From an uncultured Lachnospiraceae bacterium (lineage in GTDB: Bacteria > Bacillota > Clostridia > Lachnospirales > Lachnospiraceae): 64,000 bases of DNA. The translations under genes and the position numbers were made by a program. The notes below the pieces were generated by a model. That model worked only from the letters and a program-made list of their open reading frames with translations. It had not been told where the DNA came from and did no database searches. Location of the stretch: positions 16,094 through 80,093 of the forward strand of contig CAOKOL010000014.1 in the NCBI GenBank assembly GCA_948470335.1. The letters are read 5' to 3'. Below are positions 7,971 to 20,900 of the stretch, piece after piece (within the stretch, counting starts at the first letter, position 1; each line of letters opens with the position of its first letter).

Positions 7971-8129
7971 GTGTATATCGGCAGGCAAGCAACTTTTTAT
8001 TGCAAAACCGGCATCGGGATTATAAAATATGAGTAGGAAGCTGATTGGAAAAGGCCGGAAAACGGCTGAGTTGTGTTTCATATGTATCTTGTGGAAGAAT
8101 GAAGCACAAAAAAGCGCGGGTGGTGTTTG

Positions 8130-9719
8130 ATGGGGAAAATCTTTAATACGACAGGGGTGTGCAGACCCGACAGGCATTATATGGTCAATATTGATAAGAG
8201 GCTGAATGAAATTGAGGAGCTGATTGCTCAGGGCGCATATTTTACCATAAACCGGGCGAGGCAGTTTGGGAAAACGACGACGATCCGGCTGCTGAGAGAG
8301 CGGCTGTCCGACAGATATATTGTGTTATCCATCAGCTTTGAAGGAATAGAAAAGGAAGTGTATGCCGGTGCAGTCTCTTTTTGTCGGAGGATCTGCCGGC
8401 TTTTATACAACAGAATGTCAGCGCAGCGCGGCGCAGAGGGGATTCCTGAAAAACTGATTGCGCAGATGGAACAAATGTGTGATGGAGAAACCAATCTGGC
8501 AGACTTATCAGACTTTATTTCTGCTTTATGTGCTCAAACAGAAAAACCGGTCGTATTGATTATTGATGAAGTGGATCAGGCCAGTAATCAGGAAATTTTT
8601 CTTTCTTTTTTGGGAATGCTTCGAAATAAATATTTAAACAGTGATGAAGAACCGGCCTTTCAGTCGGTGATCCTGGCCGGCGTCTATGATATAAAAAATC
8701 TGAAACTGAAGATAAGGACAGATACGGAGCATCAATACAACAGTCCATGGAACATTGCCGCGGATTTTACCGTTGATATGAGCTTTTCTCCGGAGGATAT
8801 CGGGGGAATGCTGGAAGAGTATGAACAGGATAAACACACCGGAATGAATATAGATGCCATGGCGCTGCTGCTTTACGAGTATACTTCCGGATATCCTTAT
8901 CTGGTTTCCCGGCTGTGCGGAATAATGGATGAGCGTGTGCCACGGGAAGATGGATTCGACGCAAAAGCATCGGCCTGGACAAAGGCGGGGCTGACAGAGG
9001 CGGTAAAAATCCTTCTGACAGAGCCCAATACCCTGTTTGACGATATCGTAAAAAAACTGGCGGATTTTCCGGAATTAAAGAAAATGCTTTGCGCCGTTTT
9101 ATTCCGGGGAGAAAGGATTCCATATAATGTGTATCACTATGCGATTAATATGGGGTGCATGTTTGGTTTCATAAAAAATCATCAGGGTATGGTGGAAGTG
9201 TCCAATCGGATTTTTGAGACATTGCTGTATAATCTGTTTCTGTCGGAGGAGCTATTGGACAGTAAAATTTATAAGGCGGCGGCTTTGGACAAAAATCAGT
9301 TTATTCGTAATGGTCAGTTGGATATGGAGCTGGTTCTGGAACGGTTTGTGGAATCTTTTACAGAGATTTATGGAGATGCAAAAGAAGCTTTCGTGGAGGA
9401 AAACGGACGCAGGTTCTTTTTGCTCTATCTGAAACCGATTATCAATGGCGTGGGAAATTATTATGTCGAAGCCCGAACCAGAGATATGCGCAGGACCGAT
9501 GTGATTGTGGACTATCGGGGCATACAATACGTCTGTGAACTGAAAATATGGCATGGGCAGGAGTATAACCGGCGGGGGGAACGGCAACTGATCGGTTATC
9601 TGGATGATTACCACTTGACAAAAGGGTATATGGTGAGTTTTAATTTTAATCAAAAGAAACAGGTTGGTGTAAAGAAGATAGAATTGGACGGCAGGCTGAT
9701 TGTGGAGGCGGTGGTATAG
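8130..9719 (+). CDS. AAA-ATPase-like protein with C-terminal PD-(D/E)XK nuclease-type domain
   Basis: About 529 residues from the ATG at 8130; a TTG at 8127 is possible but weaker. The N-terminal P-loop region has the degenerate Walker A NRARQFGKTTTIRLL and a Walker B, VVLIIDEVDQA. The last 100 residues resemble the PDDEXK_9 fold, with RRTDVIVDY and VCELKIW supplying D and E-x-K. Such proteins are common in Clostridia and are often multicopy; their role is not established, although mobile-element and defence links have been suggested for related ATPase-nuclease fusions. It lies directly upstream of the mini-CRISPR and the cas operon, on the same strand. The region is AT-richer than the che genes. 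Confidence 0.8.
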   Translation: MGKIFNTTGVCRPDRHYMVNIDKRLNEIEELIAQGAYFTINRARQFGKTTTIRLLRERLSDRYIVLSISFEGIEKEVYAGAVSFCRRICRLLYNRMSAQRGAEGIPEKLIAQMEQMCDGETNLADLSDFISALCAQTEKPVVLIIDEVDQASNQEIFLSFLGMLRNKYLNSDEEPAFQSVILAGVYDIKNLKLKIRTDTEHQYNSPWNIAADFTVDMSFSPEDIGGMLEEYEQDKHTGMNIDAMALLLYEYTSGYPYLVSRLCGIMDERVPREDGFDAKASAWTKAGLTEAVKILLTEPNTLFDDIVKKLADFPELKKMLCAVLFRGERIPYNVYHYAINMGCMFGFIKNHQGMVEVSNRIFETLLYNLFLSEELLDSKIYKAAALDKNQFIRNGQLDMELVLERFVESFTEIYGDAKEAFVEENGRRFFLLYLKPIINGVGNYYVEARTRDMRRTDVIVDYRGIQYVCELKIWHGQEYNRRGERQLIGYLDDYHLTKGYMVSFNFNQKKQVGVKKIELDGRLIVEAVV

Positions 9720-9743
9720 AAAAAGGCTCTGTCGGGAATATTT

Positions 9744-9774
9744 GATAAACCGTAAGCATGGGATGTATTTAAAT
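9744..9774 (+). repeat. Degenerate CRISPR repeat upstream of cas6
   Basis: A 31-base segment matches the array repeat of this locus with one T-to-A change near the 5' end, one inserted G in the middle and the last C changed to T. It includes an intact CATGGGATGTATTTAAA core. Its last eight bases, ATTTAAAT, correspond to the crRNA 5' handle ATTTAAAC. It lies 9.2 kb from the main array and 25 bp after the stop of the ATPase gene. Confidence 0.85.
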
Positions 9775-9796
9775 AGTTATAAATGATGAATAAATT

Positions 9797-9832
9797 ATTT
9801 AAACCGTAACATAAGATGTTTATGTATAAAAC
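9797..9832 (+). repeat. Second, more diverged CRISPR repeat (3' repeat of the mini-array)
   Basis: ACCGTAACAT is intact and is followed by a GATGT element and a TATAAAAC ending, so both halves of the repeat are recognisable with small insertions. A further fragment resembling AACAT..GATGGGATATT continues at 9831-9850. It would supply the downstream processing or end structure of the mini-crRNA. Confidence 0.6.
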
Positions 9833-9855
9833 ATAAGATGGGATATTATTGATCG

Positions 9856-9891
9856 TCAGCCGTAAGACAGTATTTTATCGGTTGATTTTTT
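9856..9891 (+). terminator. Short intrinsic terminator between mini-CRISPR and cas promoter
   Basis: TCAGCCG (9856-9862) pairs with CGGTTGA (9879-9885), including one G-U pair, followed directly by six T. It would end the mini-CRISPR transcript just before the protospacer-like site at 9899, making the upstream RNA an independent short transcript. Confidence 0.6.
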
Positions 9892-9898
9892 GTTTTCA

Positions 9899-9951
9899 AG
9901 TTAAAAATGTTGAATAATAATATTGACAATAAGATAAATAAAGCTTATAAT
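9899..9951 (+). promoter_or_regulatory. cas operon promoter with overlapping self-target site
   Basis: A consensus-perfect promoter has TTGACA at 9923-9928, 17 bases, and TATAAT at 9946-9951; transcription should start near 9958. Directly upstream, 9899-9917 is the site matched by the mini-CRISPR guide, preceded by TTTTCA, a plausible type I-B PAM context. A Cascade complex bound there would cover the -35 box. Confidence 0.85.
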
Positions 9952-10010
9952 ATTTGACAAAATATAACATTATGATTTTTAAAAACAGATATATTCGGAA
10001 AGGAACCCTC

Positions 10011-10703
10011 ATGCAAGTATTCAAAATAAGACTGAAATTATATTTGCTGCAAGATATCCCTGCTAATCAGGTACAGGAAAAAATAGCGGCGTTTATTGAT
10101 ACGGGTCTTGCCAGGCAGACAGAATTACTTCATTTTCATGAAGAAAACAGATATAAAAACTATTGTTTTGATTCACTCTATCCACCGGAACGGGACAAAA
10201 TATATAAGAAAGACCAGATCTACACGGTGACGATCCGCACAGTAGATCATGCGCTGGCCAATTATTTTAGTGAAGTATACAAAAATCATTATACAAATGA
10301 GATGAAGGGCCTTGTCACCGAAATATGTATTCTTCCAAAAAAAATGATAGAATTTCTGTATTCGTTGACGCCTGTCGTACTGAAAGATGAACAGGGATAT
10401 TGGAGGGATCATATGGCTTTGGAACAGTTTGAAGAACGTCTGAAAATCAATCTGATTAAAAAATGGAATTATTTAACAGGAGAGAAACTCCAGGAGGATT
10501 TTCCGTTATATACGCTTCTGGAATTTTTGAATACCAGTCCGGTCAGCACAAAATATAAACGGATTCATTTGCTGGGCGATAAGCTGCGCCTTCAGATTGC
10601 GGATCACGAATCGGCGCAGAAGCTGGCTTACATGTCTTTGGGCACAGGCATGCTGGAAATGAATAGTCGGGGATACGGGTATGTAAATTATCGCTGGCTG
10701 TAA
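10011..10703 (+). CDS. cas6: Cas6, CRISPR repeat endoribonuclease
   Basis: 230 residues from the ATG at 10011, which follows GGAAAGGA. The longer open frame from 9954 begins within the promoter and is rejected. The protein has the Cas6 double-ferredoxin pattern and ends in the family's glycine-rich loop, GTGMLEMNSRGYGYV. It cuts the pre-crRNA inside each repeat, leaving an 8-nt 5' handle; the array repeat ends in ATTTAAAC, close to the usual I-B handle. It is the first gene of the operon and is followed 10 bp later by cas8b. Confidence 0.92.
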   Translation: MQVFKIRLKLYLLQDIPANQVQEKIAAFIDTGLARQTELLHFHEENRYKNYCFDSLYPPERDKIYKKDQIYTVTIRTVDHALANYFSEVYKNHYTNEMKGLVTEICILPKKMIEFLYSLTPVVLKDEQGYWRDHMALEQFEERLKINLIKKWNYLTGEKLQEDFPLYTLLEFLNTSPVSTKYKRIHLLGDKLRLQIADHESAQKLAYMSLGTGMLEMNSRGYGYVNYRWL

Positions 10704-10713
10704 GGGGGATGAT

Positions 10714-12465
10714 ATGCTGAATGAGTGTTTAGAAGTTTTTGAATATCTGCTGAAAGAAAAAGGGGATTCTCTGATTCTGGGTTCTTATGTTCCGGCTGAC
10801 GGCACATATCTTTATGTCGGCAGAGACGGAGAGATAAAAGAAGTGATGGAAATTAAGATAGACAGAAAGACAAAAATGATTGATCGATCAAACGCTTTTT
10901 TTTCGGATTTTTGTTTTTGCGACTACCACAGTCAATTGATTTCCATGAATAAGCCTGTAGACGGAAAAAAAGTGGTTCATTCTAACAATTATCTCTCTTT
11001 TTTTGTGAAAAAGGAAAGTATTACGACCGGAAAACTGACAGATGAGCTGATCGATGGGTATTATGATGTTCTGAAAGATCCTATGTCGCAAAAGTATAAG
11101 AAGTCCAGGGAGGCCGCAAGAATTTACGAGCTGTTTGAGGCGGAGGAAGGGAAGGTTGATACACAGCGGCTGGAGGAGGCCAGGGAATGGGTAAAAACAC
11201 ATATTTATTCTCTGGAAGATGTCGATATGAACAAAAAGGATTATCTGAAAATTTTCTTTGAAGAAGAAAAAGAAAAATATGAGAGAGAGGGCCGCCGCTA
11301 TTTTCTTCCCAATATATATAACAGCAATGATTATAATGTAGAAATTCAGAATACTGTTTATGGGCTTCCGGACAACAATCTGGGGATGAATGCGAAAAAA
11401 CCGTTTCTCGCTCTTAAGTCCAGAAAATATCCTGCGCCCTATCTGCTGGATAAGGGACAGGCAGTTCTGCAAAAAAAGTTTTTTGATTACCTGATGAATC
11501 GGGTGTCTGCCGGGGAATGTCATATATATGTGGATACGGAACAGAAGCAGATTGAGGGATTTAAAAACGGAGAGGCTGCAGAGCAAGTTCTGTCCGGTTA
11601 TTATCTGCATCTGCGCAAAGGCAAAACGGAAGCGGAAATAGTGGATCAGGATCATCTGTCAGGCTACAGGCAGAAACTGAAAAACCCCTTTGATTTTCAG
11701 GAAATTGTCCTAACCGCACCGAAGATGCGTGAAAAATATCAAAACAGTTACGGAAGATATCATACCAGAATAAGCGTAAGCGGACTGATCAGTGAGGTTT
11801 TATTTTCAAACTGTCTGACGGCTCATTATCTGACAAAGCCGGCGGAGATCAGGATCACAGATGCGTTGTTGAAGCGAAATATCCTGCTGGCAAGAAAAGT
11901 GATTTTTGACTGGGTATATAAAGGAAGAGACAGAGGGTTTGCCAAAATACTGCAAAAAATATCGCTGGAGATGATAAAAGATTCATTATTAATCGGACGT
12001 AAAGAAAAAGCATTATGGCAACTGAATTTGAGATGGTCATTTTTGGAATATTTTGTACAGGAAGGAGAAGGAAAGATGGCGGAATTTATAACGGAGCTGA
12101 CAGAATGTATGGAACGAAAGGTGTTGGGAAACAGCGTGATGCCGCCGGCAGACGACAGGGAATATTATTACGCGGTTGGTCAGATGGTATCATATTTGAT
12201 TTCGCTGAGTAAATCTAAGGACAGTAAACAGTCGCTGATTAATCCGTTTTTAAATGCTCGGACGGACGAGTACCTGAAAAAACGGATTGTGCAGCTTTAC
12301 AAAAGGTATAATTATGTTATTCCTGAATATTCCGGAAGGGTGAAAAATCTTCTGGCCATGGTTGAAGGATACCGGCCGGATGGAGATGTGGATCAGGAAA
12401 TGATTATACTGGGATATGCCAGTGACAATTTAATTTATAAGAGCAAGGAGAAACGGGATGAATAA
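10714..12465 (+). CDS. cas8b: Cas8b, large subunit of type I-B Cascade (TM1802/Csh1-like)
   Basis: 583 residues, normal for the TM1802-type Cas8b family. Placement between cas6 and a Csh2-type cas7 identifies the subtype. It recognises the PAM and recruits Cas3. The N-terminal part is rich in aromatic and charged residues; two Cys (FCFCDYHSQ) are seen near residue 68, but I see no complete zinc finger. The C-terminal 129 residues form a helical segment preceded by an internal ribosome site (see the Cas11b entry). The gene overlaps cas7 by 8 bases. Confidence 0.9.
   Translation: MLNECLEVFEYLLKEKGDSLILGSYVPADGTYLYVGRDGEIKEVMEIKIDRKTKMIDRSNAFFSDFCFCDYHSQLISMNKPVDGKKVVHSNNYLSFFVKKESITTGKLTDELIDGYYDVLKDPMSQKYKKSREAARIYELFEAEEGKVDTQRLEEAREWVKTHIYSLEDVDMNKKDYLKIFFEEEKEKYEREGRRYFLPNIYNSNDYNVEIQNTVYGLPDNNLGMNAKKPFLALKSRKYPAPYLLDKGQAVLQKKFFDYLMNRVSAGECHIYVDTEQKQIEGFKNGEAAEQVLSGYYLHLRKGKTEAEIVDQDHLSGYRQKLKNPFDFQEIVLTAPKMREKYQNSYGRYHTRISVSGLISEVLFSNCLTAHYLTKPAEIRITDALLKRNILLARKVIFDWVYKGRDRGFAKILQKISLEMIKDSLLIGRKEKALWQLNLRWSFLEYFVQEGEGKMAEFITELTECMERKVLGNSVMPPADDREYYYAVGQMVSYLISLSKSKDSKQSLINPFLNARTDEYLKKRIVQLYKRYNYVIPEYSGRVKNLLAMVEGYRPDGDVDQEMIILGYASDNLIYKSKEKRDE
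12076..12465 (+). CDS. cas11b: Cas11b small subunit from an internal start in cas8b
   Basis: An in-frame ATG (codon 455 of cas8b) at 12076 follows AAGGAG (12062-12067) with 8-base spacing, a near-ideal Shine-Dalgarno site. The product would be 129 residues, mostly helical, in the size range of Cas11. It is established that some type I-B, I-C and I-D cas8 and cas10d genes encode the small subunit by internal initiation. The site is seen directly; its translation is inferred. The stop codon is shared with cas8b. Confidence 0.65.
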   Translation: MAEFITELTECMERKVLGNSVMPPADDREYYYAVGQMVSYLISLSKSKDSKQSLINPFLNARTDEYLKKRIVQLYKRYNYVIPEYSGRVKNLLAMVEGYRPDGDVDQEMIILGYASDNLIYKSKEKRDE

Positions 12466-13399
12466 AAGAGTATACGGTGTATTAGGAATATCATCTGTTA
12501 TGGCAAACTGGAATGCGGATTTTTCGGGTTATCCGAAAACCACTGGCGATGGGGAAACTTTTGGCAGCGACAAAGCGCTGAAATACCCGATGAAAAAGAT
12601 GTGGGACGATGAAGGAAAAAAAGTTCTTTATATAAAATCCATGCGCCTTTCCGGTGAAAATAAAAAAGGCGAGATAACATTGATTCCCCGCACATTAAAG
12701 GAGCGATATGAATTGCTGTTTCAGGTGGATGATTTAAAAGAGTGCAAAAATATCAAAGAAGTGCTGACGAATCTAATGTCTGCGGTGGATGTGAAAAATT
12801 TTGGCGCGACCTTTGCGGAGTCAGGCAGCAATATCTCCATCACCGGCGCCGTACAGATTGGACAGGGTTTTAATAAATATGAGGGAACAAATCCGGAAGA
12901 ACAGCAGATTCTCTCTCCATTTCGAGATGCCAATGATAAAGATGAGGAGGCAAAAAATTCCACGTTGGGAACGAAGATCGTAAGTAATGAGGCGCATTAT
13001 TTTTACCCTTTTGTGATTAATCCAATGGCTTATAAAGAATTGGTTGCGTTAGGCGTTACGGAAGGATATACGGAAGAAGATTACCAGAATTTCCGCAGGA
13101 CAGCCCTTGTCTCTGCTACTTCTTTTGCGACGAATGCAAAAGTGGGATGTGAAAATGAGTTCGCGCTTTTTGTGGAGACAAAGGCGGATACTTATCTTCC
13201 TAATCTATCTGAATATATCTGTTTTGAAAATGGAAAAAATAGAAATGTGATTACGCTTGCCTTTGGGGATTTTCTGGAGCAGATGGGAGATGTCATAGAG
13301 AAAGTGGATATCTACTACAATCCGTATACGACAGAACTAAAAGGAGTACCTCAAAATGCTTCCGTATTTGATATCCGCACACAAAAAGAGGAAGCATAG
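12458..13399 (+). CDS. cas7: Cas7 (Csh2-type), crRNA-binding backbone subunit
   Basis: 313 residues. The N-terminus KRVYGVLGISSVMANWNADF begins the RRM-like core, and the segment YFYPFVINPMAYKELVALGVTEGYTEEDY is typical of Csh2/Cst2-like Cas7. Multiple copies coat the crRNA; Cas7 thumbs flip out every sixth base, which matters for the mini-CRISPR guide in this locus. It is translationally coupled to cas8b (8-base overlap, preceded by AAGGAG) and directly abuts cas5. Confidence 0.92.
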   Translation: MNKRVYGVLGISSVMANWNADFSGYPKTTGDGETFGSDKALKYPMKKMWDDEGKKVLYIKSMRLSGENKKGEITLIPRTLKERYELLFQVDDLKECKNIKEVLTNLMSAVDVKNFGATFAESGSNISITGAVQIGQGFNKYEGTNPEEQQILSPFRDANDKDEEAKNSTLGTKIVSNEAHYFYPFVINPMAYKELVALGVTEGYTEEDYQNFRRTALVSATSFATNAKVGCENEFALFVETKADTYLPNLSEYICFENGKNRNVITLAFGDFLEQMGDVIEKVDIYYNPYTTELKGVPQNASVFDIRTQKEEA

Positions 13400-14188
13400 A
13401 TGGAAGTATTGAGATTTATATTAAGCGGGAAATATGCTTTCTTTAAAAAGCCGGAGGTGAATTCTTACTATTATTTTACTTATGGAAATATTCATAAGGT
13501 TGCGCTGTTAGGTTTGTTTGGCGCACTCTTGGGGTATGGCGGGTATACGCAGATGCGGGTGTTTGAAAACGAAGGGAAGCGGACGAAACTTTCGAAAGGT
13601 TTTCCGGAATTTTATGAGCGGTTAAAAGATTTGCAGATTGCGATTCTTCCCGTTTCTGGCTGTAAAAACGGAGTGATTCCAAAAAAAATACAGACTTTTA
13701 ATAATTCGGTTGGCTATGCATCCAGAGAACAGGGCGGAAATCTGATTGTGAGAGAACAGTGGCTGGAGAAGCCGGAGTGGGATATTTGCCTGCGGCTGGA
13801 TTCAGAGGAAGCTTTGAAAATCAAAGATGCATTGTGCCGGAGGAGGTGTGTGTATTATCCCTATCTGGGGAAAAATGATCATCCCGCCGATATCAGAGAA
13901 GTGCGGGTAGAACAGATCAGTGCAATCAATTTTATAACGGGCAAGCTGGATTGTCTGCTGCCAAAAAGTGAAGTGACACTGGCTGGAACGGACATTGATG
14001 ATCCGGATGATTTTGATGATGAGGATGCGGGGGGGACGTTTAAATATGAGGAAGCGCTTCCTTACGAAATGGATGAGTGGATAAACCATTATATTCTAAA
14101 AACCTTTATGTATACGGATTGGCCTGTAAAAACAGAACGGATGACAGTATACCGGTTGGATGACGGAAAATCCATTGTGTTTTATTAA
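13400..14188 (+). CDS. cas5: Cas5 (Cas5h/Cas5b), crRNA 5'-handle-binding subunit
   Basis: 262 residues. The N-terminal EVLRFILSGKYAFFKKPEVNSYYYFTYGNIHKVALLGLFGALLGYGGY matches the start of Cas5h proteins, including the glycine-rich loop after the first strand. It caps the crRNA 5' handle in Cascade. It begins at the base after the cas7 stop codon. An Asp-rich stretch near residues 194-211 is unusual but not disruptive. It is the last gene before the internal hairpin terminator. Confidence 0.9.
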   Translation: MEVLRFILSGKYAFFKKPEVNSYYYFTYGNIHKVALLGLFGALLGYGGYTQMRVFENEGKRTKLSKGFPEFYERLKDLQIAILPVSGCKNGVIPKKIQTFNNSVGYASREQGGNLIVREQWLEKPEWDICLRLDSEEALKIKDALCRRRCVYYPYLGKNDHPADIREVRVEQISAINFITGKLDCLLPKSEVTLAGTDIDDPDDFDDEDAGGTFKYEEALPYEMDEWINHYILKTFMYTDWPVKTERMTVYRLDDGKSIVFY

Positions 14189-18925: not shown

Positions 18926-20784
18926 GATTAACCGTAACATGGGATGTATTTAAACGATTAAATTGCTGGCACAGGGAACCACCGAACTCTAGATTAACCG
19001 TAACATGGGATGTATTTAAACAACCACCGGGCTATATCCTGCGGAAGATTTGTTTCCGATTAACCGTAACATGGGATGTATTTAAACGATTAAATTGCTG
19101 GCGCAGGGAACCACCGAACTCTGATTAACCGTAACATGGGATGTATTTAAACCCTGAATCGTGCCGCCGGTGAAAAGTGAAACGCTATCGATTAACCGTA
19201 ACATGGGATGTATTTAAACGGCAGGAAGAAGGCGATATTGGCGCAAATGTGGGTGGATTAACCGTAACATGGGATGTATTTAAACACATGAGCTTGTCTT
19301 ATATGTTTAAGAATTTGCCAGATTAACCGTAACATGGGATGTATTTAAACATAGAGAGTGATGGTGTAAATATTGTCGGGAACCGGATTAACCGTAACAT
19401 GGGATGTATTTAAACTTAGCGGATATTCCCGATTAAAAATGGGAATGACGATTAACCGTAACATGGGATGTATTTAAACCCACTGGGCTATATCCTGCGG
19501 AAGATTTGTTTCCGATTAACCGTAACATGGGATGTATTTAAACTCCCACAGGAGGGGTTAAGGCCATACTCATTGCTTTGATTAACCGTAACATGGGATG
19601 TATTTAAACTTACCACAGATGATGGAAGCACGTTTGAAACAAATAGATTAACCGTAACATGGGATGTATTTAAACGCACAGACCCAGCCTATGATGACCG
19701 GTATGTATCCGATTAACCGTAACATGGGATGTATTTAAACAAGGCATCCCAGCGCAGGAGATGAAGTTTGTGGAGATTAACCGTAACATGGGATGTATTT
19801 AAACTTTTCCTGCCACCGGCCCAGTTTTTTAAATAATTCGAGATTAACCGTAACATGGGATGTATTTAAACTCGGAACAGAATTTTGCGCCACCCACGCT
19901 TTGTAAGATTAACCGTAACATGGGATGTATTTAAACTAAGTGTCGCTGCTCACTTTCGTATCCGTGGTATCCGATTAACCGTAACATGGGATGTATTTAA
20001 ACACATCGATAGACACTGTATTCAACTTCTTGATTGTGATTAACTGTAACATGGGATGTATTTAAACTAGCGCAGCGCCAGATTGCTTCCATTGCCATTA
20101 TGATTAACCGTAACATGGGATGTATTTAAACTTTTTATTCACCATGCCTGCCGCACCGTTCCATGCTGATTAACCGTAACATGGGATGTATTTAAACGTT
20201 GTTTTTTCTACTTTGGGGACGTCATTCTGGTATGATTAACCGTAACATGGGATGTATTTAAACATGCCGATTAAAACACAGTTGATGTAATCACGCCCGG
20301 ATTAACCGTAACATGGGATGTATTTAAACTTAATCGCCATAACTTTCATATCTCCTTCCCTCTGATTAACCGTAACATGGGATGTATTTAAACTACATAC
20401 ACACAAAAGTTTAGAAATGAAAAATTGGATTAACCGTAACATGGGATGTATTTAAACAAAGCGTGCGGGGCAATGCCCGCTGCGACTTGTCCTCGATTAA
20501 CCGTAACATGGGATGTATTTAAACGTCCATATTCCTCCGATTGTTTTTCGGATAATTGATTAACCGTAACATGGGATGTATTTAAACGCAAAAGATGTGT
20601 CATGTATAGTACTGGATGTAAAAGATTAACCGTAACATGGGATGTATTTAAACTTGGGCAATTTTGCATCGTTTGCACGCTGGCACTTGGATTAACCGTA
20701 ACATGGGATGTATTTAAACTGTGATTATTGGGATATAATTTAATCCGGTTATATGATTAACCATAACATTGGCTGTATTTAAAC
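18926..20784 (+). CRISPR. Type I-B CRISPR array: 29 repeats of 30 nt, 28 spacers of 33-37 nt
   Basis: The 30-nt repeat runs from GATTAACCGT to GTATTTAAAC (first copy 18926-18955). 27 copies are identical, one (20038-20067) has a C-to-T change, and the last (20755-20784) has four or more changes. Spacers are 33-37 nt. Transcription is on the plus strand: the leader promoter, the ATTTAAAC handle and the 3' terminal degenerate repeat all agree. Spacer 1 (18956-18991) is nearly identical to spacer 3 (19088-19122), and spacer 2 (19022-19057) to spacer 9 (19480-19513). Open frames read across the array are repeat translations, not genes. Confidence 0.99.
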
Positions 20785-20900
20785 CTCCAATATCTATGGC
20801 CTATAACATAGTGCCTATAAATTGCCCATAACATGTAATCCCCCAATATACTCCCCGTTAGCCTCAAACCCTTCACCCCACGAAAGCGAGGAATTTACCC
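20785..20900 (+). repeat. Array trailer with decayed repeat-like fragments
   Basis: After the last degenerate repeat, CCTATAACATAGTGCCTATAAA (split: CCTATAACAT / AGTGCCTATAAA, 20800-20822) and CCCATAACATGT (20825-20836) recall the repeat core CCGTAACATGGGATGTATTTAAA. They may be eroded old repeats; the similarity is short, so confidence is low. Confidence 0.35.

What the first reader, a model, noticed from the sequence alone, without database searches (positions are those of the whole stretch)
9744..9951. Mini-CRISPR upstream of cas6 whose guide matches the cas promoter: candidate self-repressing Cascade RNA
Seen: a degenerate repeat, a 22-nt spacer-like segment (9775-9796), a second diverged repeat, and a hairpin terminator at 9856-9891. 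The first 19 nt of the guide match 9899-9917 at 17 positions, mismatching only at 6 and 12. The site ends 5 bp before the -35 box of a TTGACA-N17-TATAAT promoter and is preceded by TTTTCA. Known: type I effectors flip out every sixth guide base, and short pairing lets Cascade bind without DNA cutting; CreR-type RNAs use this to autorepress cas genes. Inferred: this locus carries such a regulator. The alternative is a chance AT-rich match or a local duplication.
Basis: partly seen in the sequence, partly recalled or inferred. Interest (0 to 1): 0.93.

Follow-up and report, generated by a model that had tools for sequence, protein, structure and literature searches.

The report
CRISPR guide aimed at its own switch
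Beside a bacterium's CRISPR genes sits a two-repeat mini-CRISPR whose guide matches, over 19 bases, the genes' own promoter except at two bases that the CRISPR complex is reported not to read; its predicted RNA likely lets the complex turn its own genes down, and 33 of the 78 loci searched, this one included, show the same design, mostly with different guides.

Summary
A degenerate two-repeat mini-CRISPR (9744-9827) precedes a type I-B cas6-first operon. Its guide matches 9899-9917 at 17 of 19 positions, mismatching only at 6 and 12, behind TCA, 5 bp upstream of a perfect TTGACA-N17-TATAAT promoter. None of 3000 shuffles reached 17/19; the site is unique in the assembly.

Comparison supports the interpretation. 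Of 78 distinct cas6-upstream regions (the window's included), 33 have a handle|guide and TCA|target pair (at least 14 of 17); guides set against another locus's TCA sites give 0.5 loci on average. In 30 non-redundant pairs, 36 of 53 mismatches fall at positions 6 and 12. Relatives with 60-70% identical Cas6 have guides agreeing at only 2-12 of 17, each fitting its own promoter. An RNA-guided cas autorepressor (CreR) predicts this; chance or a frozen duplication does not.

CreR is a published kind, so this is a new member. The calls add its spread over clostridial I-B loci, wholesale guide turnover, and a sequence record of unread sixth bases. RNA expression and repression are untested; no own promoter for the RNA was found, and 45 of 78 loci gave no such pair.

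The parts
9744..9774 (+). degenerate repeat 1 (one inserted G relative to the array repeat); its last 8 nt, 9767-9774, are the predicted 5' handle ATTTAAAT
   Evidence: array repeat
9775..9797 (+). guide (23 nt once repeat 2 is set in register); nt 1-19 match the promoter site
9798..9827 (+). degenerate repeat 2: first 22 nt 17 of 22 like the array repeat (predicted 3' handle), last 8 nt eroded (3 of 8)
9767..9819 (+). predicted mature 53-nt guide RNA (8-nt handle, 23-nt guide, 22-nt 3' handle) if Cas6 cuts the eroded repeats as described for creA genes
   Evidence: inference and PMC8501985 (start of abstract and passages); not shown here
9855..9891 (+). hairpin plus T run, predicted terminator of the guide RNA
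   Evidence: -11.7 kcal/mol, z -3.06; not reported by the scan
9896..9898 (+). TCA, predicted PAM
   Evidence: TCA precedes targets in 33 of 78 loci, next trinucleotide 10 of 78
9899..9917 (+). target site matching guide nt 1-19 except 6 and 12
9923..9951 (+). promoter TTGACA-N17-TATAAT in front of cas6 (consensus match)
   Evidence: 12 of 12
10011..10703 (+). cas6 (230 aa from ATG)
   Evidence: TIGR01877 below its curated cut-off, PF01881 above its cut-off
10714..12465 (+). 583-aa protein in the place of the large subunit (presumably a divergent Cas8b)
   Evidence: no Pfam or NCBIfam hit at E 0.001; assignment by position only
12458..14188 (+). cas7 (12458-13399) and cas5b (13400-14188)
   Evidence: PF05107; TIGR02592
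14304..18751 (+). cas3, cas4, cas1b, cas2
18926..20784 (+). CRISPR array, 29 repeats GATTAACCGTAACATGGGATGTATTTAAAC (last one degenerate), spacers 33-37 nt

Best explanation
The element at 9744-9891 is a two-repeat mini-CRISPR whose predicted RNA would likely guide this locus's own type I-B Cascade to the cas6 promoter and so likely repress the cas operon without cutting it, a CreR-type autorepressor. Predicted steps: (1) a short RNA ending at the hairpin is made; (2) Cas6 cuts both degenerate repeats, leaving an 8-nt handle, a guide of about 23 nt and a 22-nt 3' handle; (3) Cascade loaded with it reads TCA at 9896-9898 and pairs with 9899-9917 as segments 1-5, 7-11 and 13-17/19, bases 6 and 12 being flipped out and unread; (4) pairing stops there, so Cas3 cutting and primed spacer uptake would not follow, while the complex, reaching towards the -35 box, would block RNA polymerase; (5) when Cascade is scarce, busy with array crRNAs or disabled by a phage inhibitor, the promoter would open. 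The guide's own DNA is preceded by AAT, not TCA, so it would not be targeted.
For: Match 17 of 19, mismatches only at 6 and 12, 0 of 3000 shuffles; unique in the assembly; TCA in front; 5 bp upstream of a 12 of 12 promoter; hairpin with T run. Repeat erosion follows the pattern described for creA genes: handle end of repeat 1 and first 22 nt of repeat 2 kept (PMC8501985, passages).

Comparative: 33 of 78 loci (window included) have a handle|guide and TCA|target pair; next trinucleotide 10 of 78; guides against another locus's TCA sites mean 0.5, max 4 in 300 shuffles. Of 53 mismatches in nt 1-17 of 30 non-redundant pairs, 36 lie at 6 or 12; positions 1-5, 7, 8, 10, 11 together have 1, position 9 has 2 (threshold unweighted by phase). 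In the nine pairs of loci with 60-70% Cas6 identity the guides agree at 2-12 of 17, each fitting its own target at 13-16 of 17. In the closely related L028/L030 (Cas6 87%) guide and target changed together at 7 and 9, and the target alone changed at 6 and 12. In seven loci including the window the target lies 2-7 bp upstream of a -35-like hexamer.

TCA is a reported clostridial I-B PAM (PMC4860712, PMC10328091; passages). The flipped sixth base is seen in a I-B Cascade structure (PMC11096372; passage). In H. [quoted passage not shown] passages, part of the abstract among them).
Against: No RNA or repression data exist here. No sigma-70-like promoter for the guide RNA was found on the + strand in 9550-9744 at 9 of 12, so transcription may depend on read-through from the upstream gene or on a weak promoter. 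TCA could not be confirmed from this array's own spacers: six patterns covering 8 of 28 spacers found 0 viral contigs and the phage search gave one weak hit (34 nt, E 0.2). 45 of 78 loci gave no TCA pair at 14 of 17, L025 among them (13 of 17). Of the other 44, 19 have no repeat-like core of 14 of 19 or more, but 11 have one of 16 or more without a detected target, some of them ordinary arrays. In PMC10989794 spacers cut to 16-20 nt repressed only weakly (44-67% of the control left), so 17-19 paired bases may repress less than assumed. The terminator scan missed the hairpin.
Confidence: 0.92

Rival explanations
1. It is a creA-like antitoxin guide (CreTA or CrePA): the RNA represses a toxin gene, not cas.
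For: Same anatomy (two eroded repeats, partial match to a promoter behind a PAM) as creA genes (PMC8501985, passages).
Against: The target promoter's -10 ends at 9951 and cas6 starts at 10011: about 59 bp remain, and the ORF list (80 aa and up) shows nothing there but an extended start of cas6 itself, from 9954. A very short toxin RNA inside the leader was not tested for.
Confidence: 0.04
2. A relic: an eroded self-matching spacer left over from an old array, with no present role.
For: Repeats are degenerate and no own promoter was found.
Against: A relic would not be expected to recur in 33 of 78 loci with different guides, mismatches kept to sixth bases (36 of 53), and joint changes of guide and target between the close relatives L028 and L030.
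Confidence: 0.03
3. Chance AT-rich similarity or a local duplication.
For: AT-rich guides of distant loci reach 11-13 of 17 among themselves.
Against: 0 of 3000 shuffles; 33 of 78 loci against 0.5 expected; opposite-strand pairs in 5 of 30; similarity falls to background from about nt 20.
Confidence: 0.01

Closest known systems
CreR, cas-regulating RNAs of type I-B, I-E and V-A (Liu et al. 2023, Cell Host Microbe: not looked up, seen only in a reference list; content from the reviews PMC12737573 and PMC13131331, passages read, and from recall)
   Same: crRNA-like RNA from a mini-CRISPR near cas, partial match to the cas promoter, predicted Cascade-guided autorepression
   Different: clostridial cas6-first I-B operon; pairing often over three 5-nt segments (segment 13-17 fully kept in 20 of 31 pairs); guides differ between relatives; expression and repression untested here
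CreA of CreTA (H. hispanica, H. hubeiense; PMC8501985, start of abstract and passages)
   Same: two eroded repeats with the same halves kept; pairing at 1-5 and 7-11, with 6 and 12 not taking part; PAM-flanked promoter target
   Different: target is the cas promoter and no toxin gene was seen between; motif TCA instead of TTC; longer pairing
crRNA-like standalone mini-arrays predicted across CRISPR-Cas systems (Shmakov et al. 2023, NAR; not held; content recalled)
   Same: computational prediction of mini-arrays with partial matches to cas promoters
   Different: whether these clostridial loci are in that set could not be checked
tracr-L of Cas9 systems (Workman et al. 2021, Cell; seen only in a reference list; content recalled)
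   Same: short-guide autorepression of a CRISPR operon
   Different: type II, natural single-guide RNA, Cas9

Membership tests
CreR | mini-CRISPR with repeat-like sequences next to a cas operon | tested here: met
   9744-9827 beside cas6; core of repeat 1 is 17 of 19 to the consensus used
CreR | guide partly complementary to the cas promoter, PAM-flanked | tested here: met
   17 of 19 at 9899-9917 behind TCA; set-level test. TCA not confirmed from this array's own spacers
CreR | mismatch tolerated at flipped sixth bases, pairing too short for cutting | tested here: met
   window mismatches at 6 and 12 only; 36 of 53 mismatches at 6/12 in the set; background similarity from about nt 20. The lack of cutting itself is inferred
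CreR | not coupled to a toxin gene | tested here: met
   no ORF between target promoter and cas6; a very short toxin RNA was not tested for
CreR | RNA made and processed by Cas6 | not testable with these tools
   needs small-RNA sequencing; no own promoter found in 9550-9744
CreR | Cascade-dependent repression of cas transcription | not testable with these tools
   needs a reporter assay
CreTA / CrePA | toxin RNA or toxin protein under the targeted promoter | tested here: not met
   targeted promoter leads into cas6 after about 59 bp, no other ORF listed
ordinary CRISPR array with a self-targeting spacer | intact repeats and a spacer of array length (33-37 nt here) | tested here: not met
   repeats degenerate, guide 23 nt

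The most novel reading that the evidence does not exclude
Clostridial type I-B systems treat the operator of their own cas operon as replaceable: guide and target are swapped as a unit, in either orientation and on either side of the promoter, while the TCA motif and a 5+1 reading frame stay fixed. If so, these loci are a natural evolutionary record of what Cascade reads: bases 6, 12 and 18 drift at about the rate of unpaired DNA while their neighbours are frozen, and guides may be renewed by capture of fresh promoter sequence rather than by slow change alone.
Probability: 0.4. Interest if true: 0.66.

Novelty: new member of a known kind. Interest (0 to 1): 0.52.

Why it matters
It shows by comparison alone that RNA-guided self-repression is likely common in clostridial I-B CRISPR, systems used for native genome editing in several Clostridium species (PMC10328091, passages): strains with a working CreR would throttle their own Cascade, and over-expressed editing crRNAs would be predicted to relieve it. 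The set of guide-target pairs gives a sequence-only test of which guide bases Cascade reads, and suggests a 17-nt, three-segment design for repression without cutting that can be tested directly.

Tried and rejected
A first unweighted look read the minus-strand loci the wrong way round. Scans with every sixth base down-weighted were replaced by an unweighted scan on both strands, so that the mismatch phase could not be imposed. A seed-only scan (nt 1-5 and 7-11 perfect, TCA demanded; 35 of 78 loci, 31 non-redundant) gave the same picture; there position 6 mismatches in 21 of 31, 12 in 16, 18 in 22. It lost L060, L083 and L091 and gained L025, L069, L081, L090, L092, some of which (L069, L092) are weak.

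Permuting the handle letters gave mean 2.4 loci over 500 permutations, but 9 of 500 reached 28 or more and 3 reached 33 or more. I did not inspect which permutations these are; permutations that recreate the AT-rich handle would do it, but this was not checked. The swap control is the cleaner one.

Joint changes of guide and target: since every pair was picked for matching, any two pairs will show joint changes, and guides of distant loci reach 11-13 of 17 by AT content alone. I therefore lean only on L028/L030; L075/L080 and L083/L093, chosen by eye, are weaker examples, and L031/L045 with a similar count was left out.

Rows that may be false among the 33: L091 (core 11 of 19), L079 (13), L088 (12), L056 (10). 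They were not dropped from any count. Dropped before counting: of 93 cas6 loci (L008-L100), two without a tblastn hit (L097, L098), one with short upstream DNA (L085), and 12 duplicates, leaving 78.

PAM from this array's own spacers: phage search and six patterns covering 8 of 28 spacers in viral contigs gave nothing usable. A CreR promoter was sought and not found. A guessed repeat pattern used, before the array had been read, found only chance-like sites.

Full report
What is there. The window holds a type I-B cas operon in the order cas6 (10011), an unassigned 583-aa protein in the Cas8 place, cas7, cas5b, cas3, cas4, cas1b, cas2, then an array of 29 repeats GATTAACCGTAACATGGGATGTATTTAAAC with 33-37-nt spacers. 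In the gap before cas6 lies a mini-CRISPR. Repeat 1 (9744-9774) keeps the last 8 bases of the array repeat at 7 of 8. Repeat 2 (9798-9827) keeps the first 22 at 17 of 22 and has lost the rest (3 of 8). PMC8501985 (start of abstract and passages) describes this uneven erosion for creA genes: the halves kept are those that become the 5' and 3' handles. A hairpin with a T run follows (9855-9891; -11.7 kcal/mol, z -3.06). A 25-nt repeat pattern with up to 3 mismatches finds 29 places in the assembly, all in the array; the mini-CRISPR's own copies are too eroded for that pattern, and so might others be.

The match. Guide nt 1-19 equal 9899-9917 except at 6 and 12. The three bases before the site are TCA; after five more bases begins TTGACA-N17-TATAAT. 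None of 3000 dinucleotide-preserving shuffles of 9797-10010 reached 17 of 19 on either strand. In the assembly the site is unique.

Comparison. Of 93 loci, 78 distinct usable upstream regions remained, the window's among them. In each, -800 to +30 around the cas6 start was scanned on both strands for an 8-mer within one mismatch of four handle forms, followed by a 17-nt guide matching another site at 14 or more of 17, with no weight on phase and no PAM asked; targets that themselves look like repeats were left out. Pairs whose target is preceded by TCA occur in 33 of 78 loci; the next trinucleotides are TAT (10), AAT (9) and ATT (7), although TCA makes up only 1.8% of trinucleotides there. Setting each locus's guides against the TCA sites of another locus gives 0.50 loci on average, at most 4 in 300 shuffles. 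TCA is thus recovered as the motif without having been asked for. It agrees with published clostridial I-B PAMs (PMC4860712, passages; PMC10328091, passages).

Sixth bases. In the 30 non-redundant pairs, mismatches at positions 1 to 19 are 0,0,1,0,0,19,0,0,2,0,0,17,0,2,1,5,6,22,12; at 20 to 32 they are 17-25 of 30. 36 of the 53 mismatches in nt 1-17 fall on 6 or 12 (binomial 1.4e-21 against 2/17; the pairs share some ancestry, so the figure is only indicative). Positions 6, 12 and 18 thus mismatch about as often as the unpaired DNA beyond nt 20. This matches the 5+1 pattern of a solved I-B Cascade (PMC11096372, passage) and the CreA mutants in which 6 and 12 did not matter (PMC8501985). With only TCA, the handle and nt 1-5 and 7-11 demanded, segment 13-17 is fully kept in 20 of 31 pairs and segment 19-23 in 1 of 31: about two thirds of these pairs run over three segments, against the two critical segments described for haloarchaeal CreA.

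Turnover. The window's guide agrees with those of its nearest relatives that have one at 7, 10 and 2 of 17 (L009, L024, L025; Cas6 70, 63, 61% identical), yet the four guides fit their own promoters at 15, 15, 16 and 13 of 17. Over all 34 guides (the 33 plus L025), own matches average 15.2 of 17 and swapped ones 6.6; swapped values of 13 or more occur only in three pairs of near relatives. Between the clear relatives L028 and L030 (Cas6 87%) guide and target both changed at 7 and 9 with pairing kept, and the target alone changed at 6 and 12. Looser examples are L075/L080 (joint changes at 4, 5, 9, 13, 15; target alone at 6, 12) and L083/L093 (joint at 7, 11, 13, 14; pairing not kept at 12, 17; target alone at 9). 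The near relatives L093/L094 differ in the target only at 12; L036/L039 only at 17. Because all pairs were picked for matching, and AT-rich guides of distant loci reach 11-13 of 17, only L028/L030 is firm evidence of joint change along one lineage.

Geometry (consensus promoter matches only). In the window and in L009, L011, L031, L045, L056, L061 the target lies 2-7 bp upstream of a -35-like hexamer (its PAM-far side facing the promoter, except L061). In L018, L019, L066, L075, L080, L093, L094 and L096 it lies downstream of a -10-like hexamer. L041 overlaps the -35. For the rest no clear promoter was found or the arrangement differs. Guide and target are on the same strand in 25 of 30 pairs (18 forward, 7 reverse) and on opposite strands in 5.

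Results against. 45 of 78 regions show no TCA pair at this threshold. Among them are near relatives: L010 shows no clear mini-CRISPR to the eye, and L023 only a short repeat-like stretch. Of the 44 that remain when L025 is set aside, 19 have no repeat-like core of 14 of 19 or more, while 11 have a core of 16 or more without a detected target, some of them ordinary arrays. No promoter for the RNA was found. The array's own spacers gave no PAM evidence. In H. hispanica, spacers cut to 16-20 nt repressed only weakly (PMC10989794, passages). Nothing here shows expression.

Reading. The simplest account is CreR: an RNA that lends Cascade to its own promoter. Predicted steps are the making and cutting of the RNA, the binding, and the block of polymerase. 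Shown are the anatomy, the uniqueness of the site, and the recurrence of the design, with read bases matched and sixth bases free, across relatives. CreR RNAs of type I-B, I-E and V-A are already described (PMC13131331, passage; PMC12737573, passages), so the locus is a new member of a known kind. Whether clostridial members were listed before could not be checked: the searches listed no paper whose title or abstract start is about them; Shmakov 2023 is not held and Liu 2023 was seen only in a reference list.

Noticed in passing
L070 -251..-44 and L071 -380..-119 relative to the cas6 start: The guide's target lies in front of a small helix-turn-helix gene (HTH_11 / Rrf2-like) that precedes cas6; a second regulator inside the autorepressed operon is possible.
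   Followed up: partly
L043 -377..-44 and L039 -246..-33 relative to the cas6 start: ORFs of 110 and 70 aa without a Pfam hit sit between the guide's target and cas6; a CrePA-like arrangement there is not excluded.
   Followed up: partly
window 18926-20784: Spacers 1 and 3 differ by one base and one nt of length; spacers 2 and 9 by one base and a two-base offset, as if the same element was sampled twice.
   Followed up: no
window 20755-20784 and about 20822-20840: The array's far end carries a degenerate repeat and a further partial repeat-like stretch.
   Followed up: no
window 9830-9840: A third partial repeat-like stretch, AACATAAGATG, which also stands inside repeat 2, lies between repeat 2 and the hairpin.
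   Followed up: no
L081, L090: Guide and target seem to agree for about 20 nt only if one base near position 12-13 is skipped (read by eye); possibly a register slip at a flipped base.
   Followed up: no
window 10714-12465: The protein in the Cas8 place matches no Pfam or NCBIfam family at E 0.001.
   Followed up: no
window 8127-9719: AAA-ATPase-like gene (PF14516, PF09820) directly upstream on the same strand; possible source of read-through transcription of the guide RNA.
   Followed up: no
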